From positions 1 to 34,387 of the forward strand of contig VGZH01000060.1 in the NCBI GenBank assembly GCA_016872645.1: a stretch of 34,387 bases of DNA, written 5' to 3'. Under the pieces are notes generated by a model. The model was not told where the DNA came from. It made no database searches and worked only from the letters and a program-made list of their open reading frames with translations. Shown here one piece after another: positions 1,992 to 34,387 of this stretch (positions within the stretch are counted from its first letter, which is position 1; every line of letters starts with the position of its first letter). This DNA is from Planctomycetota bacterium. Lineage in GTDB: Bacteria > Planctomycetota > Planctomycetia > Planctomycetales > Planctomycetaceae. Position numbers and translations under genes: made by a program.

Positions 1992-2002
1992 GGTCTCGGT
2001 CC

Positions 2003-2377: not shown

Positions 2378-3786
2378 GCGGCCTCCGGCAGATCCACCAG
2401 CGAGTGAATGTTGCCGCTCACCGGCGATGCCGCGAATCGACCATCTTGCTTGCAGATCTCGACGGGCAATCCGCCGATCGGGTTGAGCATCGTCGAGACA
2501 ACTCGACCGGTGATCTCGGCGCCGTCAGTGACGCTCAACCGATACCGCCGCAGAATGCGCGGCAGGATGGTCTTCATGGTCATCAGAGCCAAAGGCGCGC
2601 CGAGGCACAGTCGCGGGCCGGCTCCAAACGGCAAGTACTCGTAGGGAGACGGGGCAATCGTCAGCCAGCGATCCGGATCGAACGTCTCCGGATTTGGAAA
2701 CAGGTCCGGTCGATGTTGTGTCATGAATTGGCTGAAGATGATCACCGTGTTTCGCGGCAATGACAGCGGCCCCAGTTCCATCGGGACGGCATTGCTGCGC
2801 TGCGAGTAACTCGAAGCTGGCAGCACACGCATGCTTTCGCGAAGCACTCGGTCCAGCAGCAAACCCTTGCCGCCATCGAATGCCGCCAGCGGTTCGTCGT
2901 ATACGCCGGCGAGCAGTTCGCGAAAGAGTGAACTCATCACCTCGGGATGCTGAGCCAACAAGAACAGAGTCCAACCCAGCGTCAGCGCCGAAGTCATGTG
3001 GGCCGCTCCAAACAGCACCGCGACGTGCCCGACGAGTTGTTCGTTCGAGACTCCGCCGGTTTGATCGTGACCTCGGATGAGTTGCGACAACAAGTCTGAG
3101 CCAAGTCTGCCCGCCTCGCGCCGGAAGCGAATCAGATCGAGAATCCGTGACTCCAACCGTTCTGCCAGAGCCAGCAATTCCTCGTAGCGCGGCATGAAAT
3201 CTTCCGTCGGTAGAAATGCGCCGAGACTGAGGTGATGGTTTACCTCGACCCACGGGTCGAGCATTTCGCCAATCTCCAACGCGATCTCCATTTGATCCGC
3301 ACCGAATAAGATTGAGCTGGTGATCCTCCGCATGAGTACAGTCATCTCTTGGGACAGATCCAGCGTTGCGCCGGGCTGCCAAGCATCAAGCATTTCGTCC
3401 GTCATCGAGGAAATCGTGTCGTGGTAAACACCGATCGTCCGCTTCTCGAACGGAGCGGCGACCATTCGCCGTTGTTGCTTGTGTTCGTCGCCGTTCATCG
3501 TCAGCAATCCGCTTGTCAGTCGACGCAGCGCCGACTTTTTCGGACCGCGAAGCGCGAAGAACCGCGAATGGAACAACTTCGAGTCGCTGAGAACTTGATG
3601 GTTCAGCTCTGGGCTGAAGATGAACACAAGCTGTTGCTCGGATTCGCGCAGAGCGGCGAGATCACCGTGTTCTCGATGCAGCTTTCGCATGCACCCAATC
3701 GGGTCGGCGACAAAATCATGCAGCCGTCCGTCCGTAATTGGAGGATTCCCCGTCCAGAGGTTGATGTCGGAAGTCGGTCGATTCAT
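2353..3786 (-). CDS. cytochrome P450
   Basis: A soluble-type P450 of about 477 residues with no membrane anchor. The heme ligand is Cys394 in FGAGPRLCLG, matching the FxxGxxxCxG signature. The K-helix ExxR is E317-x-x-R320 in LRESMR, and the PERF-like region is present as FDPDRW. The I-helix reads LFGAAHMTSA, so the usual A-G-x-D/E-T proton-relay motif is altered (His before Met-Thr). Length and overall pattern are those of bacterial class I or CYP110/CYP120-like enzymes, and the substrate cannot be read from sequence. ATG at 3786 follows GAGAAAG at a usable spacing; in-frame alternatives are ATG 3804 and TTG 3825. No ferredoxin or reductase gene lies in the window, so electron partners must be encoded elsewhere. 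Confidence 0.93.
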   Translation of the reverse strand: MNRPTSDINLWTGNPPITDGRLHDFVADPIGCMRKLHREHGDLAALRESEQQLVFIFSPELNHQVLSDSKLFHSRFFALRGPKKSALRRLTSGLLTMNGDEHKQQRRMVAAPFEKRTIGVYHDTISSMTDEMLDAWQPGATLDLSQEMTVLMRRITSSILFGADQMEIALEIGEMLDPWVEVNHHLSLGAFLPTEDFMPRYEELLALAERLESRILDLIRFRREAGRLGSDLLSQLIRGHDQTGGVSNEQLVGHVAVLFGAAHMTSALTLGWTLFLLAQHPEVMSSLFRELLAGVYDEPLAAFDGGKGLLLDRVLRESMRVLPASSYSQRSNAVPMELGPLSLPRNTVIIFSQFMTQHRPDLFPNPETFDPDRWLTIAPSPYEYLPFGAGPRLCLGAPLALMTMKTILPRILRRYRLSVTDGAEITGRVVSTMLNPIGGLPVEICKQDGRFAASPVSGNIHSLVDLPEAAQERRAAA

Positions 3787-3855
3787 GAGGTCGGTCTTTC
3801 TCATCCCTGAACTACAGAACTGCAATCTGTATCTCGTTATAGGACTTTACCGCTA

Positions 3856-3880
3856 GACGAATTCGGCAGAATTCTTCGTC
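3856..3880. promoter_or_regulatory. imperfect inverted repeat between divergent P450 and lipoprotein genes
   Basis: GACGAATTC (3856-3864) and GAATTC-TT-CGTC (3869-3880) form inverted arms around GGCA, with a two-base bulge on the right arm. It lies in the 200-base divergent spacer and could bind a regulator serving both genes, or be chance. No clear -35/-10 pair was identified. Confidence 0.25.
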
Positions 3881-3988
3881 TTGCCTCGGCAAAACCGATT
3901 GGCCTAAAACCCGCAGCGGCTGGGGGTTCGTTTTTGGAAACTCCATGGCGGATCAATCCTCGAAACTTTTCCACGGATGGACGTTGTC

Positions 3989-5320
3989 ATGATGAAAATC
4001 AGCTGGCGGCTTGGAAGCTGGATGCTGGTGGCCACGATACTTTCGGGGTGTGGAGGCGATTCAGGTTCTAAGCCACACGCCGAAAAAAAACTTGATACGA
4101 CAACTCGTCAGGCATCACCGGCGTTGGCGATGAACGATGACGAGACGCCTGAAACGGGCGGAGTTGTACCCACCTCCGCAATTGGTGAGCCAAGCCAGAA
4201 ATCGGATGTGGACGAAGATGAAACCAGGATCGCCGCGCCGGAAAAAAACTCTCCAGAATGGTTCATCCTGCAAATCACGCGACTCAAGTTGCGGCCGCTT
4301 GGAGATGAAGTCGACGCCTTCTCGCAATCACCTGACAAACAGGCTGAGTTGCGACGTGAACGGAATGAGCAGTTGGTCAACCTCGCCACCGAGGCAATTG
4401 CTCGAACTCACAAAAACAAGACAGAAGCTGGCCAGCGAGTTTTCGACTTGGCAGTCCATCATCTCTTGGAAGCCGAATTGCAGTTGGCTCTCACGGGGGA
4501 CAAAGAACACATCGATGCAATTTACGAACATGCGAGTTCGTTGTACGAACGCGATCCCAAATCGAAAGCCGCCATCGAAGCGGGGCAAGTTCTGATTTCG
4601 TTCGCGCGGTTAAACGCTCAGCGGTTTGGTCAACAAGAACCAAAATGGCTCGAGGAGTACGGCCGGCTGGCGAGACAATTTGCCAAGAGCTTTCCACAAG
4701 AAGAACGGCAGGCAATCCCGATTCTGCTCGCTGCCGGCCAGAGCTGTGAATTCCACGGTCTGACAACGGATGCCATCCAGTCTTATGCGACTATTCAGGA
4801 ACAGTTTCCGGAAAATCCGGCAGTAGATCGTGTCACCGCCATCTTGCGACGACTCAACCTGAAGGGTCGCCCCATCGAGCTCGCCGGTCCCACGCTTGGC
4901 GGCGGCTACGTCAATGCCGCCGAGATGACTGGCAAACCGATGCTAGTTGTGTTCTGGACAACACAAGCTCAGCCATTCGTGAGGCAGTTGCCGCACCTGC
5001 GGGAATTGCTCGGCCAGATTAACTCAGAACGATTGAATGTTGTGAGTGTGAATCTGGATGACGATGACAACGAATCCGCCGTTCAGACCTTTCTGGAAAC
5101 CAATGGCTTGAATTGGCAAACGATCTTTCAAACGGACGCTGAAAAGCGAGGCTGGAATAATCCTGTGGCGACGTACTACGGGATCCAATCAGTGCCGCTG
5201 TTTTGGGTAGTTTCTGCCAAGGGGACCGTTGTCGATGCTTCCAACAACGTCCAACAGATTGAGCCACTACTCCGGAAGCTCATGATTTCCAGGCAGACTC
5301 CCCAGAGCGAGCAGAAGTGA
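3989..5320 (+). CDS. lipoprotein with cysteine-less thioredoxin-like domain
   Basis: A 443-residue protein with a lipoprotein signal ending in the lipobox LSGC (acylated Cys21). A low-complexity linker (about 25-80) is followed by a helical tetratricopeptide-like region (about 90-280) and a C-terminal TlpA/AhpC-like thioredoxin fold (about 290-435). In the fold, the place normally occupied by FWATWCGPC reads FWTTQAQPF (residues 322-330), so both redox cysteines are absent, while the cis-proline region (SVPLFW) is kept. It is therefore probably a binding or structural domain rather than a disulfide oxidoreductase. ATG 3989 is preferred because GGATGG lies 8 bases upstream; ATG 3977 and 3992 are also in frame. 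It diverges from the P450 gene. Confidence 0.85.
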   Translation: MMKISWRLGSWMLVATILSGCGGDSGSKPHAEKKLDTTTRQASPALAMNDDETPETGGVVPTSAIGEPSQKSDVDEDETRIAAPEKNSPEWFILQITRLKLRPLGDEVDAFSQSPDKQAELRRERNEQLVNLATEAIARTHKNKTEAGQRVFDLAVHHLLEAELQLALTGDKEHIDAIYEHASSLYERDPKSKAAIEAGQVLISFARLNAQRFGQQEPKWLEEYGRLARQFAKSFPQEERQAIPILLAAGQSCEFHGLTTDAIQSYATIQEQFPENPAVDRVTAILRRLNLKGRPIELAGPTLGGGYVNAAEMTGKPMLVVFWTTQAQPFVRQLPHLRELLGQINSERLNVVSVNLDDDDNESAVQTFLETNGLNWQTIFQTDAEKRGWNNPVATYYGIQSVPLFWVVSAKGTVVDASNNVQQIEPLLRKLMISRQTPQSEQK

Positions 5321-22372: not shown

Positions 22373-24646
22373 TTACTTTCCCGCGAGTATTTCCTTCAGC
22401 AAATTCGGTGGCGACATCGGCAATTTCTCCATGCGGACGCCAACAGCATTGGCGATCGCGTTGGCGACTGCGGCAGGTGGCGGGACGATGGGGACTTCGC
22501 CAACGCCGCGGACGCCGAAGGGGTGTTCGGGGTCGGGGACTTCGACGAGGATCGTGTCGATCATGGGGACGTCGTAGATCGTCGGGATACGGTAGTCGAG
22601 GTAGCTGGCGTTGCGCATCACGCCCTTGTCGTCGTACCAGTATTCTTCGTTGAGCGCCCAGCCGATCCCTTGGACGACTCCGCCTTGGAGTTGGCCTTCG
22701 ACGTAGCTGGGATGAACTGCTGTGCCGACGTCTTGGCTGATCGTGTAGCGGAGGATTTGTGTTTTGCCAGTGTCGGGATCGACTTCCACATCGACGCAGT
22801 GCGTGCCGAAGGAACCGCCTTGATTGGCTTCGGACGAAAAACCTCGACCAATGACCGGGCCTCCGCAGTGGTTGACTTGTTCGGCGAGGGCTTTGAACGT
22901 GATGTTCTTGCCGGGACCGATGAGGCTCGCGGTGGCGACGTCGTAGCTGACTTGGCTGGGATCGACATCCCACAGAACGGCGGCGCGTTGGACCATTTGG
23001 CGTTTGATGTCTTCGCCCGCTTCGTAGGCGGCGATGCCGGTGGCGAAGGTGACTCGGCTGCCGCCCGTCACGTCGTTGTAACCGACGGCGTCGGTGTCCA
23101 CGACGTTCGGATTGATGTCGGTCGCGGTCAGGCCAAGCGTTTCGGCAAGCTGCATCGCGATGCTGGCTCGTGAGCCGCCGATGTCGGTCGTACCCAGCGA
23201 CAGCGATACGCTGCCGTCGGTGTTGACGGTCGCAAACGCGGCGCTCTTCAAACCGCAGTTGAACCAGAAGCCGGATGCGACGCCTCGACCCACCTTGCCA
23301 CCAAACTTTGGTTTCGGCAGCGGCGTCGAGTAGTGTTCGCTCTTCTTGAGATAATCGACCGTTTCCCACATGCCGATGCGCGGGAAGACCGGGCCATCGA
23401 CTCGGCGAGTCCCTTCCTTCGCGGCGTTTTTCGCACGGAACTCCAGCGGGTCGAGCTTGAGCTTCTCGCAGATCTCGTCGATGACGCTTTCGACGGCGAA
23501 GGCTCCGTTGGTCGCGCCGGGTGCTCGATAGGCATTCGTCCGCGGCTTGTTCACGCAGACGTCGTAGCCATCGACGCTGCCGTTCGGGACGTCGTAGCAG
23601 GCGAAGGCACACATCGCCGCCATGCCGATCGGCGAACCGGGGAACGCACCGGCGTCGAACGCCATGTACGCGGTCCCGGCGGTGATCTTGCCGTCGCCGT
23701 CCACGCCGATCTTGACCTTCATGTACGACGCGGGTGTCGGGCCGGTCGCTTCGAGCACGGCCGCTCGGTCCATCACCAGCTTGACCGGCTTGCCGCTCTT
23801 CTTGGAGAGCGCCGCCGCAACCGGTTCGAGGTACACGGAAATCTTCCCGCCGAAGCCGCCGCCGATCTCCGTCGGCACGACCTTGATGTGGCCCAGCGGC
23901 ACGCCGAGCAACTCGGAGCATTGCTGCCGCACCGTGAACGAACCCTGCGTGCAGCACCAAATCGTGACGCGGCCGTCCGGATTCCAAGTCGCGGTCGCGG
24001 CGTGCGGTTCGATGTAGCCTTGATGCACCGTGCCGGTCACGAACTCACGCTCGACGACGACCTTCGCCTTCGCGAACCCGTCGGCGACGTTCCCCTTCTC
24101 GAAATGGAAATGCTTCGCGACGTTTGTCGGGGTCGAGCCGGTTGTGCCCGCTCCGACCTCTTCGCACCGCACGTCATCGTTGAGCACAATCGCCGACGGC
24201 TTCATCGCCTCGCGCACATCGAGCAGCACCGGCAGCGGCTCGTATTCGATCTCGATCAGCTTCACCGCCTCCTCCGCGATATGAATGTTGTCCGCGGCGA
24301 CCGCCGCGATCGCGTGCCCCTTGTAAAGCACCTTCTCGCGAGCCAACACATTCCGCGTGAGATGAGCCATGCAGACCGCCCCCTCGCCGAGCTGAGCGAT
24401 TCGCGTCCCTGGATCAGGCAAGTCCTTCGCCGTCACGACCGCTCGGACGCCCGGCAGTTTCTCCGCCTTCGACGTATCCAACCGCTTGATCTTTGCATGA
24501 GCATGCGGGCTCCGAAGCATCGCTGAGTACAGCATCCCCTGAATCTTTGTGTCGGCCCCGTACCGAGCCCGCCCCGTGACCTTATCGACCCCGTCGTGGC
24601 GAACAGGACGAGTGCCGATGACTTTGTATTTGTTGGCTGTGGCCAT
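22373..24646 (-). CDS. molybdenum hydroxylase large subunit (XdhA/CoxL type)
   Basis: A 757-residue Mo-cofactor subunit of the xanthine dehydrogenase family. It has an N-terminal a/b hammerhead (KVIGTRPVRHDGVDKVTGRARYGAD split across 8-32), the cofactor motif GGGFGGK (262-268), the active-site loop AYRAPGA (372-378) and base Glu717 in GVGEVP. The loop lacks the AYRCSFR of form I CO dehydrogenase, so CO is unlikely. The loop is closer to hydroxylases of purines, nicotinate or aromatic acyl-CoA esters. It is the last gene of a three-gene operon (FAD, 2Fe-2S, Mo), and a REP-like hairpin pair separates it from the 2Fe-2S gene. Cofactor maturation genes are not in the window. Confidence 0.95.
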   Translation of the reverse strand: MATANKYKVIGTRPVRHDGVDKVTGRARYGADTKIQGMLYSAMLRSPHAHAKIKRLDTSKAEKLPGVRAVVTAKDLPDPGTRIAQLGEGAVCMAHLTRNVLAREKVLYKGHAIAAVAADNIHIAEEAVKLIEIEYEPLPVLLDVREAMKPSAIVLNDDVRCEEVGAGTTGSTPTNVAKHFHFEKGNVADGFAKAKVVVEREFVTGTVHQGYIEPHAATATWNPDGRVTIWCCTQGSFTVRQQCSELLGVPLGHIKVVPTEIGGGFGGKISVYLEPVAAALSKKSGKPVKLVMDRAAVLEATGPTPASYMKVKIGVDGDGKITAGTAYMAFDAGAFPGSPIGMAAMCAFACYDVPNGSVDGYDVCVNKPRTNAYRAPGATNGAFAVESVIDEICEKLKLDPLEFRAKNAAKEGTRRVDGPVFPRIGMWETVDYLKKSEHYSTPLPKPKFGGKVGRGVASGFWFNCGLKSAAFATVNTDGSVSLSLGTTDIGGSRASIAMQLAETLGLTATDINPNVVDTDAVGYNDVTGGSRVTFATGIAAYEAGEDIKRQMVQRAAVLWDVDPSQVSYDVATASLIGPGKNITFKALAEQVNHCGGPVIGRGFSSEANQGGSFGTHCVDVEVDPDTGKTQILRYTISQDVGTAVHPSYVEGQLQGGVVQGIGWALNEEYWYDDKGVMRNASYLDYRIPTIYDVPMIDTILVEVPDPEHPFGVRGVGEVPIVPPPAAVANAIANAVGVRMEKLPMSPPNLLKEILAGK

Positions 24647-24660
24647 GTGAGTTTCCTTCC

Positions 24661-24766
24661 TTTGGGGTGCGGTATGTCAGTACCGCTTTGGATTCTTCAG
24701 CCTCGAGCGGATCGAACATCCCGATCAAAAATTATCCAAAGCGGGGCTGACACCCCGCACTCCAAA
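24661..24766. repeat. REP-like paired hairpins, copy 1
   Basis: Two inverted 32-base arms (24661-24692 and 24735-24766) match at all but five positions. Each arm is itself a hairpin with loop TGTCAG: stem GCGGTA/TACCGC in the left arm and GCGGGG/CCCCGC in the complemented right arm. The sequence changes are compensated within each stem. It lies in the gap between the 2Fe-2S and Mo subunit genes. A related element is at 32353-32462. Confidence 0.85.
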
Positions 24767-24767
24767 A

Positions 24768-25280
24768 TTAGTGGCAGCCCTTTTCGTGGCAGTTCTTCAT
24801 GTAGTGGTCTTGCCAAGTGGTGGCCGCGTCTTGGACGGATCGGACGATTTTGTCGTAGCCGGTGCAGCGGCAGAGATTACCCGCGAGGTTGAAGCGGATT
24901 TCGTCTTCGGTCGGTTTCGGGTTCTGCGAGAGGAACCATTCGCTCTGCATGATGAAGCCCGGCGTGCAGATACCGCACTGCAACGCGGCTCCTTCGAGAA
25001 ACGCTTTTTGGATCGGGTCCAACCCGGCCGCCGTGGCGACGCCTTCGATCGTGCGGAGCGTGGCCCCTTCGGCCTCGACCGCCAGCACGAGGCAGCTGTC
25101 AACTGGCCGCCCGTTGAGGATTACGGTGCAAGCCCCGCAGTTGCCGTTCGAGCAACCTTCCTTGGTGCCGGTCAGGTCGAGATTGTCTCGCAGCACCTCG
25201 AGCAAGGTCTGACGCGGCTCGCAGAGGAATTCGGTTTGATTGCCGTTGAGGGTTGTCGTGACGACTCGTTTTTTTGCCAT
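24768..25280 (-). CDS. molybdenum hydroxylase 2Fe-2S subunit
   Basis: A 170-residue CoxS/XdhC-type electron-transfer subunit. The plant-type ferredoxin cluster uses Cys43, Cys48, Cys51 and Cys63 (EGCSNGNCGAC). The second, helical cluster uses Cys102, Cys105, Cys137 and Cys139 (CGICTPGF, NLCRCTGY). All eight ligands are present, so it should pass electrons from the Mo site to FAD. ATG 25280 follows AAGGA; the open frame continuing to 25325 is an upstream artefact. The C-terminus is extended by an unusual Cys/His-rich end, MKNCHEKGCH. It sits between the FAD and Mo subunit genes. Confidence 0.95.
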   Translation of the reverse strand: MAKKRVVTTTLNGNQTEFLCEPRQTLLEVLRDNLDLTGTKEGCSNGNCGACTVILNGRPVDSCLVLAVEAEGATLRTIEGVATAAGLDPIQKAFLEGAALQCGICTPGFIMQSEWFLSQNPKPTEDEIRFNLAGNLCRCTGYDKIVRSVQDAATTWQDHYMKNCHEKGCH

Positions 25281-25309
25281 CTCATGATCCTTTTTCAAAG
25301 CAATTCGTT

Positions 25310-25398
25310 GCCGCGGATGAAACACAGATCGAGCACGGAGAATGCAGTCAGGCGATTCGATTTCAAATCCGTGTTTGATCGATGTTTTCTCCGTGGCT
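25310..25398. repeat. imperfect inverted repeat between FAD and 2Fe-2S genes
   Basis: Arms 25310-25342 and 25365-25398 align as reverse complements with roughly 70 percent identity, sharing TCCGTG, GATC, TGTTT and TCCG(T/C)GG blocks. It fills the 129-base gap within the operon. It differs in sequence from the TGTCAG hairpins and is probably a second class of dispersed intergenic element. Confidence 0.6.
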
Positions 25399-25409
25399 GA
25401 AAATGATGG

Positions 25410-26306
25410 TTAGTGACCGACCTTGCAATCGACATGTTCACCCTTGGCTCGCGCGACGGCAGCTTTAAGAGCTCGTTCCACAAGCACGCCGGTGATGTGC
25501 ATACGGAACTCGGCCGTGCCGCGCATGTCGGTGATCGGTTTGGCGATCACTTTCGCGGCGGCGGCGGCTTTCGCGATGGAGTCATCGTTGACTGGTTGGC
25601 CTGCGAGTCCGTCGCCGGCGGCTTTCGCGAACAGCGGTGTTGGGGCGACAGCTCCCAGCGAAATTCGAGCGGAGACGAATTTGTCTTTCGCATCGTTCAA
25701 GACAACCGACGCTCCGACACCGACGACGGCGATATCCATTTCGTTGCGGGGGATGAAGCGGCGGTAGTGTGAGCCGCTGTTGGCCACTCGCGCGGGGAAT
25801 TTCAGTTCGACGAGCAGCTCGCCCGCCGCTAGCACGTTCTTGCCGGGGCCGGTACAAAAATCTTCGACGGCGACTTCGCGGCGACCTTTCGGTCCGGCGA
25901 TGAGGGCAACAGCTTCGAGTGCGATCAGCGATGGGATCGAATCCGCCGCCGGGCCGGAGTTGCAGAGGTTGCCGCCAACAGAGGCTCGGCTTTGAATCTG
26001 GACGCCGCCGATGATGCGGCAACTGTCGGCGAGCGCGGCGTAATCCGACACGATGCCGCAGTGACCATAAACCTGATAACAGGGCACGGCCGCTCCAAGC
26101 CGCAGGCCGAAAGAGGAATGCTCAAGCACATTGAGTTCGGCGATCTTCTTGACGTCGATCAGCATGTCGGGGGCGAGCCGACCCACTCGCACCTGGTCGA
26201 TGAGATCGGTCCCGCCGGCCAGCATGCGAGCCGAACTGTTGTGCTTGCCCGCCAGTTCAATCGCGGCGGCGAGGGTTATCGGGGCTTCGTATTCAAAGTC
26301 GCGCAT
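25410..26306 (-). CDS. molybdenum hydroxylase FAD subunit
   Basis: A 298-residue CoxM-type flavoprotein and first gene of the operon. FAD-binding segments are MLAGGTDLIDQVR near residue 30 and SRASVGGNLCNSGPAADS near 110, followed by the CO dehydrogenase flavoprotein C-terminal domain (ISLGAVAPTPLFA). The extra 4Fe-4S insert of 4-hydroxybenzoyl-CoA reductase is absent, which argues against that enzyme. ATG 26306 follows GGAAAGG at good spacing; the open frame further upstream is not supported. It would pass electrons from the iron-sulfur subunit to NAD or another acceptor. Confidence 0.93.
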   Translation of the reverse strand: MRDFEYEAPITLAAAIELAGKHNSSARMLAGGTDLIDQVRVGRLAPDMLIDVKKIAELNVLEHSSFGLRLGAAVPCYQVYGHCGIVSDYAALADSCRIIGGVQIQSRASVGGNLCNSGPAADSIPSLIALEAVALIAGPKGRREVAVEDFCTGPGKNVLAAGELLVELKFPARVANSGSHYRRFIPRNEMDIAVVGVGASVVLNDAKDKFVSARISLGAVAPTPLFAKAAGDGLAGQPVNDDSIAKAAAAAKVIAKPITDMRGTAEFRMHITGVLVERALKAAVARAKGEHVDCKVGH

Positions 26307-27591: not shown

Positions 27592-29073
27592 TCATTCGGG
27601 CGTTTCGCCGATCGATGCCGTCCGGACGGCCAACTCCTCCGGTGCGTGCTTCGACAATCGACTGCGAGCGTAACCGAAGAAATACGCGAGACCGATGCCA
27701 TACATTCCGAGCGTCAGCCAGAGCACAATCGGAGCCTGTAACCAGCCGTATACAAACGCTGCGAACAGGCTCATCACGATCACGAGCGCCGGCAGCAGCG
27801 GATACAGCGGCACCTTGTACGGCCGGGGCATGTGCGGCTCTTTGGCTCGCAAGATAAAAAGACAAATCATCGCCAGGACGTACCAGATCAATGCGGTCAG
27901 ATTGCACGTCAGCACGGCGACGAGTACGGCCGCTTCGTTGAAGTAGCCCCAGATCACGAAACCTGCGATGACGAGGCTCCAGATGCCGATCGATACATCG
28001 GGTGTGCGACGCACCGGATGCAGATGACCCAGAATCGACGGCAAGTAACCGGCTCGGCCCATCGCGAACGATTGGCGGCTGACGGCGAAGATCATCCCGT
28101 TGTAGCTCGCGACCATGCCGCAGATCGCCAGGATCGAGAAGGCGATCAAATGCGGCGAATGCGACTTCCCCGGCCACACTTCGCTGTAAACGTGCGGCAG
28201 CGGAAACAACAGATTCGCATCGCCCGTCTTCTTGTAGTCGCTTCCTGCTGCCGCCGCGAAGAACCACGTCAGCACGACGAGCACGATCAACGTGATCTGC
28301 GCGTACGTCAGCCCACGCGGGATCGAGTGATGCGGTTCATGAGCTTCCTCCGCCGCCAGCGCGACCGACTCGATGATCACCAGCCACCAGATCGCGAACG
28401 GGATCGCCTTGATGACTCCTTCCCAACCGTGATTCAGCAACGGCTCGGTCAGGATGCGTTCGACTTTCACACCAGGGATGCACGCAATCCAAAACCAAAC
28501 GAGCGCAATGATCGCTCCGTAGGTCATCCACTCCATGATCTTGGCCTGCTCTTTCGCACCGATCCATTGCAGCACGGCGAATAGCGCCACCGTGACCAGC
28601 GCTGCAGCGGTCGTGACCTTGCCAGCTGGTAGTCCGTCGATCAGCAGGTTCAAAATAAAGTAGACATAGCCGCCCGTCGCGATCGCTGTCCCGATCGTCG
28701 CAAACAGGCTTTCGAGAAACATCGACCAGCCCATCACGAATCCCAACCACGGTCCAACGGCTCGTCGTCCGTAGGCCAACGGCCCACCCGCAAACGGCAT
28801 GGCGACGGAGAGCTCGCTCAACGCCAGCACCCAGGCCATATACAGCGCACACACAAACAGAGACGCGATCAACATGCCGGTCGGGCCAGCGACTCCCAGA
28901 CCGCCGTTCCAACCGAAGTATTCTCCGGTGATGACCGCCCCGACGCCAAGCGCCCATATCTGAACTGTCCCCATCGGCTTGTTCAGCGAATGCTCGTCGA
29001 CATGTTTTCGCTCGTCCGGCCGCAGCACCGCCCCGTCGATTGGCTCATCGGATTTCGGAGAAAGTTCGCTCAT
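27592..29073 (-). CDS. APC-family permease, ethanolamine/amine type
   Basis: A 493-residue membrane protein with about twelve hydrophobic segments starting after residue 35. The first is IWALGVGAVITGEYFGWNGG, a form typical of the Eat ethanolamine permeases. ALSELSVAMPFAGGPLAYGRRAVGPW corresponds to the conserved TM3 segment, split here around residues 82-108. The acidic N-terminus and polar C-terminus are cytoplasmic. It diverges from the amidotransferase gene across 237 bases, so both may share a regulatory region. Given the gene cluster next to it, uptake of methylamine, ethanolamine or a similar small amine is a reasonable inference. Substrate is not determined from sequence. Confidence 0.9.
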   Translation of the reverse strand: MSELSPKSDEPIDGAVLRPDERKHVDEHSLNKPMGTVQIWALGVGAVITGEYFGWNGGLGVAGPTGMLIASLFVCALYMAWVLALSELSVAMPFAGGPLAYGRRAVGPWLGFVMGWSMFLESLFATIGTAIATGGYVYFILNLLIDGLPAGKVTTAAALVTVALFAVLQWIGAKEQAKIMEWMTYGAIIALVWFWIACIPGVKVERILTEPLLNHGWEGVIKAIPFAIWWLVIIESVALAAEEAHEPHHSIPRGLTYAQITLIVLVVLTWFFAAAAGSDYKKTGDANLLFPLPHVYSEVWPGKSHSPHLIAFSILAICGMVASYNGMIFAVSRQSFAMGRAGYLPSILGHLHPVRRTPDVSIGIWSLVIAGFVIWGYFNEAAVLVAVLTCNLTALIWYVLAMICLFILRAKEPHMPRPYKVPLYPLLPALVIVMSLFAAFVYGWLQAPIVLWLTLGMYGIGLAYFFGYARSRLSKHAPEELAVRTASIGETPE

Positions 29074-29310
29074 CAGTCACCTCGAATCTTGCGGAGTCGC
29101 CCTCATCAAATCCGCAGTGCCTCGGACTTGCAAGCGGCTCCGTACCGTCCTCCGGCTTTCTACTCCCTGTTCAGATTCTTCCGTCATCTACTTCTGGCAG
29201 AGGAATCCGGGCAGAGCAATGAGCCGCAGAGAACAGCATTGATTGGAAAGCAAATCGGCATCGACTTAGACTGCCTCCCCTCAATCACGGTCGCGTCGCG
29301 GGAGTCATTC
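29074..29310. promoter_or_regulatory. divergent intergenic region, permease / amine cluster
   Basis: 237 bases between start codons of the divergent permease and amidotransferase genes. It must hold both promoters. I saw no clear sigma-70 or sigma-54 element; TGGCAGAGG near 29190 is not followed by GC at the sigma-54 spacing. No riboswitch-like fold was recognised. Confidence 0.4.
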
Positions 29311-30222
29311 ATGTGCGGCATCGTCGGATACCTGGCCAAGAAGCCGGAGCTGTGTCGGTCGCTCGGCGAGCAGGTCGTGCCGATGCTGACTTGCATGGGG
29401 GATCGCGGGCCGGACTCAGCAGGGCTGGCAGTCTTCGGCGATCCGGTCGAGGGGTCGCTGCGACGGTTCAGCATTTATGCTCCCAGTCGCCTGTTCGACT
29501 GGAGTGCGTTCGAGCAACAACTGACGGCGCGTGTCGGCGGCGAAGTCGAACTGAGTGGCTTGGAGAATCACGCGACGGTGATCGCGTCGGCGAATCCGGT
29601 CCGTTTCAAGACGTGGCTGACCGAGTCGTATCCCGATCTGCATCTGCTGTCGATTGGCCGAGCGATCGACCTCTACAAAGACGAAGGACATCCGCGCGAG
29701 ATTGCTCAGCGATATCACTTCACGCAACTCGCCGGAACTCACAGTGTCGGGCATACGCGGATGGCAACGGAATCGGCCGTGTCGCCAGCTCACGCTCACC
29801 CCTTCACAGCGGGCGAGGATTTTTGCCTCGTCCACAACGGTTCGCTGTCAAACCCGTATTCGGTCCGTCGCAAGTTGGAGAAGAAGGGGATTCGCTTCGA
29901 GACCGACAACGACACCGAAGCCGCTTGTCGATTCCTCGAATGGCGGATGAGCGAAGGGGACACGCTTGAAGCGGCGATCGCGAAGGGGTTCGATGAACTC
30001 GACGGTTTCTTCACGCTGCTGATGGCGACGGCCGACAAGCTGATCCTCGTTCGAGATGCGTTCGCCTGCAAACCGGCTGTCGTCGCCGAGACCGATGAGT
30101 ACGTCGCGATCTCGTCGGAATATCGTGCCCTCGCGCATCTTCCCGGCGTGAAAGACGCCCGTATCTTTGAGCCCGCTCCGGAGCAGATTTATTCATGGAC
30201 CGTGTCAGCACATTCGACCTGA
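29311..30222 (+). CDS. mgsA: class II glutamine amidotransferase (MgsA/GlxB type)
   Basis: A 303-residue Ntn amidotransferase. The start MCGIVGY gives N-terminal Cys after Met removal. RGPDSAG, GHTRMATES, HPFTAGEDFCLVHNGSLSN and TDNDTEAACRFL are the conserved glutaminase segments. It is a single-domain subunit, unlike PurF or GlmS, and its neighbours encode the other parts of a split glutamate synthase. This fits MgsA of N-methylglutamate synthase, or the rhizobial GlxB homolog. ATG 29311 follows GGGAG; the open frame reaching 28990 is upstream read-through. Its 3' end overlaps the next gene by 28 bases, implying translational coupling. The symbol is an inference from the cluster. Confidence 0.9.
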   Translation: MCGIVGYLAKKPELCRSLGEQVVPMLTCMGDRGPDSAGLAVFGDPVEGSLRRFSIYAPSRLFDWSAFEQQLTARVGGEVELSGLENHATVIASANPVRFKTWLTESYPDLHLLSIGRAIDLYKDEGHPREIAQRYHFTQLAGTHSVGHTRMATESAVSPAHAHPFTAGEDFCLVHNGSLSNPYSVRRKLEKKGIRFETDNDTEAACRFLEWRMSEGDTLEAAIAKGFDELDGFFTLLMATADKLILVRDAFACKPAVVAETDEYVAISSEYRALAHLPGVKDARIFEPAPEQIYSWTVSAHST

Positions 30223-30887
30223 GCCGCCAGTCGGTGCGCGAGTTGAATCAATACTTGCATCACGACCTGCCGAACAACGGCGCGGTGCGGCTGGAGATTT
30301 TGAATCCCAATGGCCAGCACAGCCTCGCGGTCGGCCTCGATGCGCCGGCTGAAGTCGACATTCTCGGCCACGCCGGCTATTTCATCGCTGGGATGAACAA
30401 GCGAGCCAAGGTCACTGTTCACGGCAACGTCGGCTGGAGCGTCGCGGAGAACATCATGTCCGGCACCGTCCGCGTGAAAGGCTGTGCGTCCGAATGCGCT
30501 GGAGCGTCGGGCCACGGTGGCCTCGTGGTCATCGAAGAGGACGCTTCGTCACGCTGCGGTATCTCGATGAAAGGCTGCGACATTGTCGTCGGCGGCAGCG
30601 TCGGACACCTCTCCGCGTTCATGGCTCAAGCCGGAACGCTTGTCGTCTGCGGCGACGCGGGAGCCAGCCTCGGCGACTCGCTCTACGAAGCCACGATCTA
30701 CGTCGGCGGAAAAATTCACAGCCTCGGAGCCGACGCTCAAGAAGAACCAATGACCGCCGCCGATGTCGCTCGTGTCAACGATCTGTTGTTAAAAGCTGGC
30801 ATCACCCGCGATCCCAAATCCTTCAAACGAGTCGCCTCCAAACGATCCCTCTACCACTGGCACGCCGACGCCGGACAACAGTATTGA
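30195..30887 (+). CDS. mgsB: GXGXG-domain glutamate synthase-like subunit (MgsB/GlxC type)
   Basis: A 230-residue protein homologous to the C-terminal GXGXG beta-helix of the glutamate synthase large subunit. Repeats of G-x-x-G-x-x-x-G character are visible: DILGHAGYFIAGMN, VHGNVGWSVAENIMSG, VKGCASECAGASGHGGLVV, GGSVGHLSAFMAQAGTLVVCGDAG and YVGGKIHSLG. In glutamate synthase this domain is structural, shaping the ammonia tunnel. The gene starts inside the 3' end of the amidotransferase gene. The next gene lies 127 bases on, across a stretch with repeated GTGCAAA units and no gene. The symbol rests on the cluster. Confidence 0.9.
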   Translation: MDRVSTFDLSRQSVRELNQYLHHDLPNNGAVRLEILNPNGQHSLAVGLDAPAEVDILGHAGYFIAGMNKRAKVTVHGNVGWSVAENIMSGTVRVKGCASECAGASGHGGLVVIEEDASSRCGISMKGCDIVVGGSVGHLSAFMAQAGTLVVCGDAGASLGDSLYEATIYVGGKIHSLGADAQEEPMTAADVARVNDLLLKAGITRDPKSFKRVASKRSLYHWHADAGQQY

Positions 30888-31014
30888 GACAGTGAAATGA
30901 ATCAACAAACACAGTGCAAAGTGCAAAGTGTCGGAACGACAGGCATGTCTTCTCCTTTTTCGCTTTTCACTCTGCGCTCGTCACTTGTCACTGCTCTTTG
31001 AGGTCAGCATCCAG

Positions 31015-32352
31015 ATGTCCGCACACATCCATCTCGAAGAAAGCTATTCCTTCAACAGCCACGTTCTGGACTACATCCAGCACGCCGCCGAGCACGGGTT
31101 GTATGACATTCGTGGTCTCGGAGCCAAACGGAAGCTGCCGACGTTCGATGACCTGACATTTCTCACGGCGAGCGCGTCGCGGTATCCGCTCGAAGGCTAT
31201 CGTGAGAAGTGTGTCTCGAAGACGACGCTCGGAACGCGGTTCGCCAAGAAGCCGATTGAACTCGAAACGCCGGTCACAATCGCCGGCATGAGCTTCGGGG
31301 CGCTTTCGGCCAACGTGAAAGAGGCGCTTGGCCGAGCCGCAACGGAGATCGGCACGTCCACAACGACCGGCGACGGCGGAATGACGCCCGAAGAGCGGAA
31401 GTCTTCAAAAACACTCGTCTATCAATGCCTGCCGTCGCGATACGGATTCAATCCGGACGACCTTCGCAAGGCGGACGCGATTGAACTGGTCATCGGCCAA
31501 GGGGCCAAGCCAGGTGGCGGCGGCATGTTGCTCGGGCAGAAGGTCAGCGCGCGAGTTGCCGGGATGCGCACGCTACCAGCGGGGATCGATCAGCGTTCCG
31601 CGTGCCGACATCCCGATTGGGTGGGTCCCGACGATTTGACGATCAAGATTGAAGAACTGCGCGAGATCACCGACTGGCAAGTCCCGATCTACGTCAAGAT
31701 GGGGGCGACTCGCGTGCGCGAGGATGTGAAGCTGGCGGTCAAGGCCGGAGCCGACGTCGTTGTCATCGACGGCATGCAGGGCGGGACGGCGGCGACTCAG
31801 CAATGTTTCATCGAGCACACTGGCATCCCAACGCTCGCCGCGCTGCCTCTCGCCGTGCAAGCCCTCGAAGAAATGGATGTCTTCGGCACCGTGCAGCTCA
31901 TCATCTCCGGCGGCATTCGTTCCGGAGCCGACGTGGCGAAAGCCCTCGCTCTCGGAGCAGACGCCGTCGCAATCGGCCAAGCGGTGTTGATGGCGCTCGG
32001 CTGCAACAGCTCAACCTACACGCACGATGGCCAACGGATCGACGCGACCGACGACTACGCAAAACTCGGCACGGCTCCCGGCTATTGCCATCACTGCCAC
32101 ACCGGCCGCTGCCCCGTTGGCATCACCACGCAAGCGCCCGAACTCGAATCCCGCATGACTCCTGAATGGGGAGCCAAGCGGCTGAAGAATTACCTGCAAG
32201 TGCTGACGATGGAGCTGACCACGCTGGCGCGAGCCTGCGGCAAGTCCAACGTCCATCACCTCGAGCGCGAAGACCTCGTCGCCCTGACAGTCGAAGCCGC
32301 CGCGATGGCAAAGGTACCGCTCGCCGGGACCAATTGGATTCCGGGGCAATAA
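31015..32352 (+). CDS. mgsC: glutamate synthase-like FMN/3Fe-4S subunit (MgsC/GlxD type)
   Basis: A 445-residue FMN-binding TIM-barrel protein. It has GMSFGALSANVKEALG, TGDGGMTPEERK, the loop GQGAKPGGGGML, VKMGATRVREDVKLAVKAGAD, IDGMQGGTAA and SGGIRSGADVAKALALGADAV. Cys358, Cys361 and Cys366 (CHHCHTGRCPVG) match the 3Fe-4S ligands of glutamate synthase. Together with the two preceding genes it rebuilds a split glutamate synthase, which in the N-methylglutamate pathway makes N-methylglutamate from gamma-glutamylmethylamide or methylamine and 2-oxoglutarate. ATG 31015 follows GAGG; an earlier in-frame start at 30928 would add a non-conserved Cys/Leu-rich segment. The REP-like element follows the stop directly. 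Confidence 0.92.
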   Translation: MSAHIHLEESYSFNSHVLDYIQHAAEHGLYDIRGLGAKRKLPTFDDLTFLTASASRYPLEGYREKCVSKTTLGTRFAKKPIELETPVTIAGMSFGALSANVKEALGRAATEIGTSTTTGDGGMTPEERKSSKTLVYQCLPSRYGFNPDDLRKADAIELVIGQGAKPGGGGMLLGQKVSARVAGMRTLPAGIDQRSACRHPDWVGPDDLTIKIEELREITDWQVPIYVKMGATRVREDVKLAVKAGADVVVIDGMQGGTAATQQCFIEHTGIPTLAALPLAVQALEEMDVFGTVQLIISGGIRSGADVAKALALGADAVAIGQAVLMALGCNSSTYTHDGQRIDATDDYAKLGTAPGYCHHCHTGRCPVGITTQAPELESRMTPEWGAKRLKNYLQVLTMELTTLARACGKSNVHHLEREDLVALTVEAAAMAKVPLAGTNWIPGQ

Positions 32353-32462
32353 TTTGGAGTGCGGGGTGTCAGCCCCGCTTTGGTTTGCGGCGGAGCCGCT
32401 TTCGTCTTTCAATGTCGGCAATTCATAGATCCACCGCGGGGCTGACAACCCGCACTGTAAAG
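32353..32462. repeat. REP-like paired hairpins, copy 2
   Basis: The left arm (32353-32383) carries GCGGGG-TGTCAG-CCCCGC. The right arm (32434-32462), inverted, carries GCGGGT-TGTCAG-CCCCGC. The left arm is nearly identical to the complemented right arm of the copy at 24661-24766. The element starts at the stop codon of the FMN subunit gene and ends about 9 bases before the glutamine synthetase homolog, just ahead of its AGAGG. Confidence 0.85.
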
Positions 32463-32471
32463 AGGCCCACC

Positions 32472-33830
32472 ATGTCTGACCGCAATGCATTGCGAAAGCG
32501 TCTGGAACAGGACGGCATCCAATTCATTCTCGTCCAATTTGTGGACGTTCACGGAGCGGCGAAAGGCAAGATGGTTCCCGCATCGTGTCTCGATGACGCG
32601 CTGGATGTCGGTGCCGGGTTCGCCGGGGCCGCGATGTGGGGGATCGGGCAGGGGCCGCACGGGCATGATGTGATGGCTCGGATTGATCCGAGTACCTGCA
32701 CGCCACTGGCTTGGATGCCGAATACGGCTCGGTTCGCGAGCAACTTGTTCGTGGACAATCAGCCGCATCCGTTTTGCTCGCGGACGAATTTGCAGCGAGT
32801 GCTCGCCGAGGCCAAGGCGAAAGGTTTTGTGTTCAACGTCGGTATGGAGCCGGAGCATTTCCTTGTCACGCGAAATTGCGACGGCTCGATCCGGCCGTGG
32901 GATCCGGCGGGAGTCGATACGCTGATCAAGCCCTGTTACGACGTGCGGTCGATGTCGGCGGCGATGGGCTATCTGCAAGAGGTGACTGCCGCGCTCAATC
33001 AGCTTGGCTGGGGGGCGTATCAGGTCGATCACGAGGACGCGAACGGGCAGTACGAGGTCAACTTCAACTACGCCGACGCTCTGACGACGGCCGACCGAGT
33101 CACCTTCTTCCGCATGTTGTCTACCGAGATCGCGAAGAAGCACGGAGCGATCGTCACGCACATGCCCAAGCCGTTCTCCGACCGCACCGGCAGCGGCTTG
33201 CACGTCCATTTCCATCTGGCCGATGCGGAGTCCGGCAAAAATGTGTGCCTCGATCACGCCGACCCGCGCGGTCTCGGCCTGTCGAAGTTGGCTTATCACT
33301 TCCTCGGCGGAGTCCTCGAACACGCGCGAGCCATCTGTGCCGTCACCAGTCCGACGGTCAATTGCTACAAGCGGCTGCAAGTCGGAGCCGGCCTGACTTC
33401 CAGCCGCTCCGGCTTCAACTGGACACCGGCATTCGCCAGCTACGGGGACAATAACCGCACGCAAATGATCCGAGTCGCCGGCCCCGGCCACTGCGAAGAC
33501 CGCACCGTCTCCTCCGGCTGCAACCCGTACCTCGCGTTGGCCGCGTTCCTCGCCGCCGGCCTCGACGGCATCGAACGCAAGCTCGAACCGGGCGACCCCA
33601 ACCTCGGCAACCTCTACGAGCGTACTCTCACCGACATCCGCGACTCCGGCATCAAGCTCCTGCCACAATCCCTCCACGAAGCGGTCGAAGAACTGCGGAC
33701 CGACACCGTCGTGAAGTCCGCCCTGGGAGCCGTCGCCGACGACTTCATCGACCTGAAAACCCGCGAATGGCAAACGTACCACAAGCAAGTGTCGGCCTGG
33801 GAATTGGAGACGTATTTGACGTCGCTGTGA
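32472..33830 (+). CDS. gmaS: GlnT/GmaS-type glutamine synthetase homolog
   Basis: A 452-residue glutamine-synthetase-fold ligase. The metal and substrate residues are in VGMEPEHFL (Glu126, Glu128), HEDANGQYEVN (Glu188, Glu195) and GSGLHVHFHL (from 240). ATP-side motifs are YGDNNRTQMIRV (Asn327-Arg329) and CEDRTVSSGCNPYLALAAFLAAGLDGI, split around 341-367. The first domain lacks the length of GlnA and the adenylylation-site loop of type I enzymes. With mgs-like genes upstream and a sarcosine oxidase delta subunit downstream, gamma-glutamylmethylamide synthetase is the best reading. Ordinary GlnT activity on ammonia is the alternative. RBS AGAGG, ATG 32472. Confidence 0.9.
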   Translation: MSDRNALRKRLEQDGIQFILVQFVDVHGAAKGKMVPASCLDDALDVGAGFAGAAMWGIGQGPHGHDVMARIDPSTCTPLAWMPNTARFASNLFVDNQPHPFCSRTNLQRVLAEAKAKGFVFNVGMEPEHFLVTRNCDGSIRPWDPAGVDTLIKPCYDVRSMSAAMGYLQEVTAALNQLGWGAYQVDHEDANGQYEVNFNYADALTTADRVTFFRMLSTEIAKKHGAIVTHMPKPFSDRTGSGLHVHFHLADAESGKNVCLDHADPRGLGLSKLAYHFLGGVLEHARAICAVTSPTVNCYKRLQVGAGLTSSRSGFNWTPAFASYGDNNRTQMIRVAGPGHCEDRTVSSGCNPYLALAAFLAAGLDGIERKLEPGDPNLGNLYERTLTDIRDSGIKLLPQSLHEAVEELRTDTVVKSALGAVADDFIDLKTREWQTYHKQVSAWELETYLTSL

Positions 33831-33903
33831 ATCGATTGCGAGAGTGAAAATACAATTGCGAACTTAACACATCTGATTCACAAGCGAAATCACGAGGCAA
33901 CCA

Positions 33904-34192
33904 ATGCCAAGATTCAGATTTTCGACTGCGTCATCACGTTTGATTCTCTATGGCGTGATCGCCACCGTCGCGGGGATCGGGATGTTGCCATCCAAGAATA
34001 TGGCCACTTTCGCCTGGCTTCAGATAATTCTGGGTCCTCTCGCAACTGCGGTCGGCGTCCTCTATCTCTTTTATAATCGTTCTGAGCCCCCCCCCATCAG
34101 TTGAGGCGCAATTCTTCGAATACGCCAAGCATGTTTTTGACGACCGTTCTGAGACTCCCTCGTCAGATTCTGATTCAAATGGTGATGCCTAG
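33904..34192 (+). pseudogene. small two-helix membrane protein, frame apparently broken at a C9 run
   Basis: As written the frame ends at 34104 with 66 residues: two hydrophobic helices (about 12-28 and 36-57), then YNRSEPPPIS. The stop follows a run of nine C (34087-34095). Reading with one C fewer, the protein continues through SVEAQFFEYAKHVFDDRSE and an acidic DSDSNGDA tail to TAG at 34190-34192. The continuation has normal protein-like composition and ends just before the next gene, so the longer form (95 residues) is probably original. The break could be a sequencing error, a true mutation or a switchable tract. The gene lies inside the amine cluster, between gmaS and the sarcosine oxidase delta subunit. 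I do not recognise the family. Confidence 0.7.
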
Positions 34193-34213
34193 TTGAAAGC
34201 CGAGTACTCGCCA

Positions 34214-34387
34214 ATGTCTTTTCAAATCGATTGTCCTAACTGCGGCTGCCGCCCGGTGTGGGAGTTTCACTACGGCGGACCATCGCGTCAGCGGCCGGAG
34301 GGTTCCGTGACCGAGCGGCAATGGGCCGAGTTTCTTTACAATCGGCCGAACATCGCCGGCGAGCAGACCGAGTGGTGGTATCACCGC
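34214..34387 (+). CDS. sarcosine oxidase delta-subunit-like protein, 5' part (runs off window)
   Basis: 58 codons are open to the right edge. The start FQIDCPNCGCRPVWEFHYGG has the Cys-x-x-Cys-x-x-Arg zinc pattern and YGG of heterotetrameric sarcosine oxidase delta subunits. QRPEGSVTERQWAEFLYNRPNIAGEQTEWW, here split over residues 27-56, matches the family's later segment (the W-x-x-x-L-x-x-R-x-N-x-x-G-x-x-x-E-x-W pattern). The zinc-binding delta subunit joins alpha, beta and gamma subunits that oxidise N-methyl amino acids; in the N-methylglutamate pathway the same arrangement forms N-methylglutamate dehydrogenase (mgd). ATG 34214 is supported by where the conserved motif starts. The beta (SoxB-like) subunit is not immediately upstream, so it must follow or lie elsewhere. 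Confidence 0.85.
   Translation, partial: MSFQIDCPNCGCRPVWEFHYGGPSRQRPEGSVTERQWAEFLYNRPNIAGEQTEWWYHR

What the first reader, a model, noticed from the sequence alone, without database searches (positions are those of the whole stretch)
27592..34387. Likely N-methylglutamate (methylamine) pathway in a planctomycete-like genome
A class II amidotransferase, a GXGXG subunit, a glutamate-synthase FMN subunit, a GlnT/GmaS homolog and the beginning of a sarcosine oxidase delta subunit lie in order, with a divergent amine-type permease. This is the mgsABC-gmaS-mgd set known from methylotrophic proteobacteria. Gene content of the window otherwise points to a planctomycete, where I do not recall such a pathway being described. 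The order is also odd: a small membrane protein precedes the delta subunit and no SoxB-like gene lies between.
Basis: partly seen in the sequence, partly recalled or inferred. Interest (0 to 1): 0.8.

Follow-up and report, generated by a model that had tools for sequence, protein, structure and literature searches.

The report
Iron-sulfur methylamine pathway in a planctomycete
A planctomycete genome carries a complete gene set for using methylamine by way of N-methylglutamate, a pathway best known from other bacteria, and its last enzyme appears to be a version, not found in the papers searched, fitted with two iron-sulfur clusters.

Summary
The window is the whole of contig C60 and stops inside soxD. 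Contig C140 of the same genome starts with an allele of that gene (105 bases identical) and continues soxA-soxG-soxB. Nine of 76 named-contig loci hold mgsA-B-C-gmaS-soxD-A-G-B on one contig; one (L037) also has the window's left flank and C140's right flank. The synthetase reads as a GmaS: 21 of 23 RhGmaS functional residues match, including the whole methylamine pocket and both substitutions that set GmaS apart from glutamine synthetase, and its best PDB match is a glutamate-methylamine ligase. New here: the alpha subunit of this D-A-G-B module keeps the ligands of two 2Fe-2S clusters. These are absent from 32 of 32 B-D-A alphas, 9 of 9 other plasmid references and the one solved sarcosine oxidase aligned. 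The iron-sulfur module stands with mgsABC and gmaS in three planctomycete families, in two gene orders. I read it as an N-methylglutamate dehydrogenase wired for electron transfer; H4MPT genes (Fae, Mch) are present to oxidise the C1 unit. In some relatives with mgsABC-gmaS no dehydrogenase alpha was found. Function is inferred throughout. Verdict: new variant of a known kind.

The parts
27592..29073 (-). amino-acid/amine permease (APC family), divergent from the operon; best NCBIfam model is ethanolamine permease, below its cut-off
   Evidence: Pfam AA_permease_2 E 3.3e-31; TIGR00908 299.9 bits against cut-off 381.75; found at the same place in the closest relatives only
29311..30222 (+). mgsA-like class II glutamine amidotransferase with N-terminal Cys (MCGIV)
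   Evidence: Pfam GATase_6 E 1.3e-17; start; next to mgsB-mgsC-gmaS in relatives
30195..30887 (+). mgsB-like GXGXG protein
   Evidence: PF01493 36.5 bits over cut-off 32.5
31015..32352 (+). mgsC-like FMN subunit of glutamate-synthase type
   Evidence: PF01645 E 1.3e-96; separate from the GltB elsewhere in the genome
32472..33830 (+). gmaS: gamma-glutamylmethylamide synthetase
   Evidence: TIGR03105 over cut-off; best PDB match 9qur glutamate-methylamine ligase, 428.8 bits; 21 of 23 RhGmaS functional residues identical
33904..34104 (+). 66-aa small membrane ORF; probably not part of the system
   Evidence: no match at E<=1e-4 in 20 relatives' loci
34214..34387 (+). soxD-like delta subunit, cut by the contig end; the operon continues on contig C140 of the same genome (locus L003: soxD 4-279, soxA 422-3274, soxG about 3354-3947, soxB 4042-5244)
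   Evidence: PF04267 57.8 bits over cut-off 27; 105-base exact overlap with C140; C140 genes

Best explanation
The operon encodes a complete N-methylglutamate pathway for methylamine. GmaS joins methylamine to glutamate with ATP, making gamma-glutamylmethylamide. MgsABC moves the methylamine nitrogen onto 2-oxoglutarate, making N-methylglutamate. The D-A-G-B complex, related to heterotetrameric sarcosine oxidase, oxidises N-methylglutamate to glutamate and passes the methyl group as a methylene unit to a folate-type carrier through the GcvT-like part of its alpha subunit. In this version the alpha subunit carries two predicted 2Fe-2S clusters, one in its N-terminal ferredoxin-like domain and one in a BFD-like domain, so electrons most likely leave the flavins through iron-sulfur centres to a carrier instead of to O2. 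The C1 unit can then be oxidised by the H4MPT route, for which the genome has Fae and Mch. Shown by computation: the gene set, its contiguity in relatives, the GmaS residues, the cluster ligands, the presence of Fae and Mch. Inferred: all substrates, the filling of the iron-sulfur sites, and the electron acceptor.
For: Gene content and order. Contiguity: 9 of 76 genome-contig loci hold mgsA-B-C-gmaS-D-A-G-B on one contig (in one, L065, mgsC is split in two frames), and L037 has the same outer flanks as C60+C140. GmaS: PDB best match 9qur at 428.8 bits, then RhGmaS 322.1, best glutamine synthetase 237.1; 21 of 23 residues, with GS Asp50 replaced by Ala and GS Glu304 by Trp as in RhGmaS. The genome has its own GlnA (609 bits against cut-off 429.15) and GltB (1428.8 against 1047), so ammonia assimilation is covered elsewhere. 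Iron-sulfur ligands: both motifs in 13 of 14 D-A-G-B alphas (the 14th is a fragment ending before the second motif) and in 2 of 2 distant ones, in 0 of 32 B-D-A alphas and 0 of 9 other plasmid references (one reference, L123, lacks the N-terminal part); a third distant alpha has both too. Pfam Fer2_BFD matches the two D-A-G-B alphas scanned and none of four alphas without the cysteines. The module stands in the other order mgsABC-D-A-G-B-gmaS in two further families. The motif RHDAV at the FMN-anchoring His is kept in 10 of 10 type-1, 37 of 37 type-2 and 8 of 10 reference beta rows (that this His binds FMN is recalled). Mch E 2.2e-117 and two Fae genes are in the genome.
Against: No expression, growth or enzyme data. 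The gamma subunit is weak (PF04268 19.7 bits, below its cut-off of 21; 0 hits in the whole-genome search, in which no control rang either). Alpha, beta, gamma and delta all fall below the NCBIfam sarcosine-oxidase cut-offs. Two of 23 GmaS residues differ (Trp189 to Phe, Ser239 to His). The permease resembles ethanolamine permeases, which could point to another amine. In six of ten genomes with a close GmaS no full-length alpha was found, so mgsABC-gmaS may exist without this dehydrogenase. G274 has mgsABC-D-A-G with no soxB or gmaS near by. The C60-C140 join rests on overlap and synteny, not on reads, and the two soxD copies differ at 9 of 174 bases. The AlphaFold model of a relative's alpha was poor (mean pLDDT 50.5) and gives no support.
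Confidence: 0.75

Rival explanations
1. The operon handles another primary amine, such as ethanolamine or ethylamine: the synthetase makes a gamma-glutamyl-alkylamide, MgsABC an N-alkylglutamate, and the D-A-G-B complex releases the aldehyde.
For: The divergent permease is closest to ethanolamine permease models; a bacterial GmaS is reported to make theanine from glutamate and ethylamine (PMC7677707, start of abstract in the listing only).
Against: All seven residues of the RhGmaS methylamine pocket are identical. The alpha subunit keeps the GCV_T folate-binding domain (E 4.3e-79), which suits a one-carbon leaving group. The permease was found only in the closest relatives while the operon is far wider.
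Confidence: 0.12
2. The D-A-G-B complex is a sarcosine or dimethylglycine oxidase for betaine breakdown, and mgsABC-gmaS merely recycles nitrogen beside it.
For: Best PDB matches of alpha and beta are sarcosine oxidase subunits, 452.2 and 329.3 bits.
Against: Among the genes annotated here next to it there is no glyA or folate gene such as adjoins the Azoarcus sarcosine oxidase. The module stands with mgsABC and gmaS in three planctomycete families in two gene orders. In the alpha tree type 1 is apart from the two sarcosine-oxidase references, with a long-branch warning.
Confidence: 0.08
3. Ordinary ammonia assimilation by a GlnT glutamine synthetase with a split glutamate synthase.
For: NCBIfam names the synthetase family type III glutamate-ammonia ligase.
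Against: The ammonia-binding Asp and the Glu-flap glutamate of glutamine synthetase are Ala and Trp, as in GmaS. The genome has a separate GlnA and GltB, both over their NCBIfam cut-offs. It would not explain the D-A-G-B genes.
Confidence: 0.03
4. The cluster is a misbinned or chimaeric contig and does not belong to a planctomycete.
For: The genome is a draft of 213 contigs, and the soxD copies at the contig ends differ.
Against: The same operon with the same flanks lies in other planctomycete MAGs, and a B-D-A version lies in a one-contig 7.8 Mb genome of the same family (G097).
Confidence: 0.02

Closest known systems
N-methylglutamate pathway gmaS-mgsABC-mgdABCD of methylotrophic Proteobacteria (Methyloversatilis in PMC5023235, passages read; Aminobacter niigataensis DMFA1 plasmid locus L126 as the sequence reference)
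   Same: Same set: GmaS, three Mgs subunits, and a four-subunit sarcosine-oxidase-like complex
   Different: Gene order D-A-G-B instead of B-D-A-G; alpha has two intact 2Fe-2S ligand sets absent from the reference; planctomycete host; alpha and beta below the NCBIfam cut-offs that the reference passes
mgsABC-gmaS-B-D-A clusters (type 2 here) of planctomycetes, Latescibacterota and Gemmatimonadota; also the Acidithiobacillus caldus plasmid cluster L117
   Same: GmaS 66-72% identical to the window's in the former, 47% in A. caldus; same mgsABC-gmaS core
   Different: Oxidising module of the B-D-A kind, alpha about 41-44% identical and without iron-sulfur ligands; its alpha and beta, where scanned (L030), also fall below the NCBIfam cut-offs
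Heterotetrameric sarcosine oxidase (PDB 1vrq, 2gag, 3ada)
   Same: Families and domain order of alpha and beta; delta subunit family; His at the FMN-anchoring position
   Different: In the 1vrq alpha, the one aligned, none of the seven aligned ligand positions of eight is cysteine; no GmaS/Mgs partners beside the two references seen

Membership tests
GmaS (gamma-glutamylmethylamide synthetase) | Score above NCBIfam TIGR03105 cut-off | tested here: met
   552.5 against 469.6 bits; this model is named for ammonia ligase
GmaS (gamma-glutamylmethylamide synthetase) | Methylamine pocket and catalytic residues of RhGmaS | tested here: met
   K30', Y147, Q175, D177, E179, E186, N188, R312 all identical; 21 of 23 named residues overall (residue list from passages of PMC7948447)
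GmaS (gamma-glutamylmethylamide synthetase) | Loss of the glutamine-synthetase Asp50 and Glu304 | tested here: met
   Ala and Trp at these places, as in RhGmaS
GmaS (gamma-glutamylmethylamide synthetase) | Falls inside a clade of GmaS of known activity | tested here: inconclusive
   Tree of 90 rows has one GlnA on a very long branch and no row of known activity
GmaS (gamma-glutamylmethylamide synthetase) | Methylamine-dependent activity | not testable with these tools
   needs an enzyme assay
N-methylglutamate pathway | mgsABC, gmaS and a four-subunit dehydrogenase together | tested here: met
   window plus C140; on one contig in 9 of 76 genome-contig loci
N-methylglutamate pathway | Growth on methylamine lost when mgs or mgd genes are removed (shown for mgsC and mgdD of Methyloversatilis, PMC5023235, passages read) | not testable with these tools
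   no genetic data for these planctomycetes
Classical MgdABCD / heterotetrameric sarcosine oxidase subfamily (NCBIfam) | alpha above TIGR01372 and beta above TIGR01373 cut-offs | tested here: not met
   808.8 against 1164 and 451.8 against 529.45 bits; the Aminobacter and Azoarcus references pass, the type-2 reference L030 does not
Iron-sulfur (type 1) N-methylglutamate dehydrogenase, proposed here | C-x4-C-x2-C-x12-C in the N-terminal domain and C-x-C...C-x4-C in the A3/BFD domain of alpha | tested here: met
   present in the C140 alpha at residues 59/64/67/80 and within 492-532; both in 13 of 14 type-1 rows, 0 of 32 type-2, 0 of 9 references
Iron-sulfur (type 1) N-methylglutamate dehydrogenase, proposed here | Clusters actually bound and used | not testable with these tools
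   AlphaFold model too poor to judge (pLDDT 50.5); needs EPR

The most novel reading that the evidence does not exclude
Planctomycetes evolved or retained a separate class of N-methylglutamate dehydrogenase in which two 2Fe-2S clusters carry the electrons of methylamine oxidation to a dedicated acceptor, which would let the pathway run without direct O2 reduction and feed the planctomycete H4MPT route, a C1 module whose natural substrate has been unclear (recalled). Relatives that keep mgsABC-gmaS without any such alpha subunit would then use a different, unknown N-methylglutamate-consuming enzyme.
Probability: 0.35. Interest if true: 0.75.

Novelty: new variant of a known kind. Interest (0 to 1): 0.6.

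Why it matters
Methylamine turnover is usually credited to Proteobacteria, and gmaS serves as a marker for it (PMC7948447, abstract). A divergent gmaS clade in planctomycetes, Latescibacterota, Gemmatimonadota and others could be missed by markers designed on proteobacterial sequences (not tested here). The iron-sulfur alpha subunit gives a testable difference in how electrons leave the enzyme. The pathway also offers a concrete C1 source for the tetrahydromethanopterin genes of planctomycetes, whose role has long been debated (recalled).

Tried and rejected
Ammonia assimilation was set aside on GmaS residues and on the separate GlnA and GltB. The small membrane ORF was dropped as a pathway part (no match in 20 loci). 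A whole-genome SoxG search found nothing in the own genome, but no control genome rang either, so it shows no absence; hmmscan of the gamma protein gave TIGR01375 50.5 bits (cut-off 143.95) and GCV_T E 1.9e-19. I first thought that the plasmid alphas annotated '2Fe-2S iron-sulfur cluster-binding protein' (A. caldus, Pseudosulfitobacter) carried clusters; they lack the cysteines, and the A. caldus one keeps the Fer2_4 domain. AlphaFold2 on a relative's alpha (L037, 11-row alignment) gave mean pLDDT 50.5 and pTM 0.38; I drew nothing from it and ran no fold search. The GmaS tree has a very long root branch and 24 open forks, so only the shallow placing of the window protein (7-row group, SH-aLRT 100) is used. 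In the beta tree type 1 is one side of a branch with only 66% support. The alpha tree warns that long branches meet, and two plasmid references (L120, L123) lie beside type 2. An MgsC set was gathered but no tree was built. G274 has mgsABC-D-A-G but no soxB or gmaS in the stretch read; unexplained. A kin search outside the phylum failed, so the iron-sulfur alpha may exist in other phyla. The phylum searches scored only the best 2 or 4 candidates a genome, and one search scored 32 of 36 to 49 candidates in G119, G146, G131, G097 and G072, so these absences are not proofs. Rows dropped before counts: 14 loci (L017-L025 and L031-L035) were left out of the trees and as copies of genome-contig loci, judged by equal contig lengths; alphas with under 350 aligned residues or under 30% identity were left out, those under 800 aligned residues out of the alpha tree, betas under 370 and GmaS under 400 out of theirs.
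Full report
Observation. Every gene named in the finding is present at the stated coordinates. The amidotransferase begins MCGIV at 29311. The synthetase passes the NCBIfam TIGR03105 cut-off (552.5 against 469.6 bits). The delta subunit is cut by the end of the sequence: the window is contig C60 in full.

What lies beyond. A SoxD search of the own genome found a second place at the very start of contig C140. C140 (9377 bases) holds a complete soxD, then an alpha, a gamma and a beta subunit gene on the same strand, then prpC and prpB on the other strand and prpD. The last 105 bases of the window are identical to C140; over the 174 bases of soxD shared, 9 differ, all within the first 72, and one changes an amino acid. 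I take this as two alleles at an assembly break rather than two operons: only one GmaS and one full-length alpha were found in the genome. The support for contiguity comes from relatives. In one of them (L035/L065) mgsC is split in two frames. L037 also has the window's left-hand hydrolase and permease and C140's prpC and prpB.

Organism. Its closest named relatives by GmaS (89-94%) are MAGs deposited as Planctomyces sp., Planctomycetales bacterium or Schlesneria, plus two labelled Candidatus Kuenenia, probably a submitter's label. I take the family to be a planctomycete one and name no species.

GmaS. The best PDB match is 9qur, glutamate-methylamine ligase, at 428.8 bits; RhGmaS (7cql) follows at 322.1, and the best glutamine synthetase is at 237.1. 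From passages of the RhGmaS structure paper (PMC7948447) I took 23 functional residues; 21 are identical, including the seven pocket residues and the catalytic Arg312, Asp177 and Glu186. The two marks that separate GmaS from glutamine synthetase, Ala for Asp50 and Trp for Glu304, are both present. The two differences are Phe for Trp189 and His for Ser239, both named in the paper as ATP contacts. The 21 are in the invariant list of 9 planctomycete sequences. The genome's GlnA and GltB are separate genes, both over their NCBIfam cut-offs.

The oxidising module comes in two types. In the window's relatives it is D-A-G-B (type 1). In many other planctomycetes, Latescibacterota, Gemmatimonadota, one Verrucomicrobia and one Spirochaetaceae MAG it is B-D-A (type 2), with beta first as in the proteobacterial references. 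Of the 76 genome-contig loci, 14 are type 1, 36 type 2, 13 show mgs genes without a module (some at contig ends) and 13 gmaS alone. In the alpha tree type 1 (12 rows) and type 2 (32 rows, including A. caldus) are each one side of a branch with SH-aLRT 100 and 99; seven references are apart from both and two lie beside type 2; the program warns of long branches.

Iron-sulfur sites. Type-1 alphas have C-x4-C-x2-C-x12-C in the Fer2_4 domain and C-x-C...C-x4-C in the A3/BFD domain; the C140 alpha has the first at residues 59, 64, 67, 80 and the second within 492-532. Both motifs are in 13 of 14 type-1 rows (the 14th is a fragment ending before the second), 0 of 32 type-2 rows, 0 of 9 other plasmid references (one of which, L123, lacks the N-terminal part) and 2 of 2 distant planctomycete alphas; a third distant one has both too. 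In the one PDB sarcosine oxidase alpha whose alignment I printed (1vrq), seven of the eight ligand positions are aligned and none is cysteine. Pfam Fer2_BFD matches the C140 alpha (36.2 bits) and L138 (27.4) over its cut-off of 26, and none of four alphas without the cysteines; Fer2_4 matches all of these.

Independent coupling. Two planctomycete genomes of other families, G329 (f80) and G208 (f53), carry mgsA-mgsB-mgsC-D-A-G-B-gmaS in this different order, with the iron-sulfur alpha; G329's GmaS is only 48% identical to the window's. A third, G274 (f53), has mgsABC-D-A-G without soxB or gmaS near by. A module that keeps the same partners through rearrangement and divergence most likely works with them.

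Cofactors and C1 fate. The beta subunit keeps the RHDAV motif at the FMN-anchoring His of sarcosine oxidase in 10 of 10 type-1, 37 of 37 type-2 and 8 of 10 reference rows (the role of this His is recalled). The alpha keeps the folate-binding GCV_T domain (E 4.3e-79). The genome has Mch (E 2.2e-117) and two Fae genes (E 1.4e-73 and 1.3e-58), so parts of a tetrahydromethanopterin route for the C1 unit exist; I searched for no other step. For Methyloversatilis, H4F and H4MPT were both discussed as possible acceptors of this dehydrogenase (PMC5023235, passages).

Distribution. In 150 genomes of the family, 60 match the GmaS query at E<=1e-80: 36 at 68% identity or more and 24 at 40-52%, by my count from the table; one of the latter (G112, 52%) lies beside mgsABC. 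In 392 genomes spread over the phylum, 7 have a close MgsC at E<=1e-150 and 5 a close alpha at E<=1e-120, of which G097 and G037 are type 2; only the best candidates of each genome were scored there. Of 10 genomes with a close GmaS examined for a full-length alpha, 4 have one and in 6 none was found, among them a one-contig genome, G119; the two further genomes examined, with only a 41-42% relative of GmaS, showed none. In four of those six (G119, G146, G131, G072... see below) not every candidate was scored. These are G119 (32 of 47), G146 (32 of 48), G131 (32 of 49) and G072 (32 of 36); G075 and G057 were scored in full. The cores without a dehydrogenase are unexplained.

Literature. Searches of the open-access library: N-methylglutamate with methylamine and Planctomycetes, 1 paper, passages read, in which the three terms stand apart and no planctomycete is credited with the pathway; gmaS with Planctomycet, 8 papers, listing seen, of which the Binatota paper's passages were read and concern Binatota; three of planctomycetes, methylamine, methylotroph, tetrahydromethanopterin, 249 papers, 15 listed, listing only; gmaS, mgsABC or mgdABCD since 2019, 276 papers, 30 listed, listing only; Planctomycet with methylated amines, 16 papers, 15 listed, listing only; N-methylglutamate dehydrogenase with iron-sulfur, 1 paper, where iron-sulfur refers to a Rieske protein; heterotetrameric sarcosine oxidase with 2Fe-2S, 0 papers. 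In what I saw there is no report of this pathway in planctomycetes or of an iron-sulfur version. Subscription papers and nearly all preprints are outside these searches, and most listed papers were not opened.

Verdict. A real, complete N-methylglutamate gene set in a planctomycete, with a dehydrogenase of a type not described in the papers I saw. The pathway is known; the host and the iron-sulfur alpha subunit are what is new. Function is inferred throughout.

Noticed in passing
window 34214-34387 and L003 4-279: The two soxD copies at the contig ends differ at 9 of 174 bases, all in the first 72, then are identical: an abrupt boundary that suggests strain variants in the assembly.
   Followed up: partly
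L029 6417-10811 (G119), L027, L028: mgsABC-gmaS in planctomycete genomes, one of them on a single contig, in which no full-length dehydrogenase alpha was found (32 of 47 to 49 candidates scored).
   Followed up: partly
window 22373-26303: A three-gene molybdenum hydroxylase set (large, 2Fe-2S and FAD subunits) on the minus strand near the operon.
   Followed up: no
L139 11334-13166 (G274): A type-1 mgsABC-D-A-G operon is followed not by soxB and gmaS but by a long ORF that looks unrelated by eye.
   Followed up: no
L099, L100, L101, L106 (Thiomicrorhabdus, Hydrogenovibrio): GmaS-like synthetases at 43% identity with no mgs match in the stretch read, about 4 to 10 kb on each side.
   Followed up: no
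L003 5377-9001: Methylcitrate-cycle genes prpC, prpB, prpD directly downstream of soxB; prpC and prpB are found there also in relatives L037 and L039.
   Followed up: partly
L114 2762-8035 and 15716-18225 (Cupriavidus plasmid): A gmaS-mgs-type cluster flanked by an FAD oxidoreductase with electron-transfer flavoprotein genes and by dimethylamine monooxygenase genes, without a sarcosine-oxidase-like complex in the stretch: a possible other way to oxidise N-methylglutamate.
   Followed up: no
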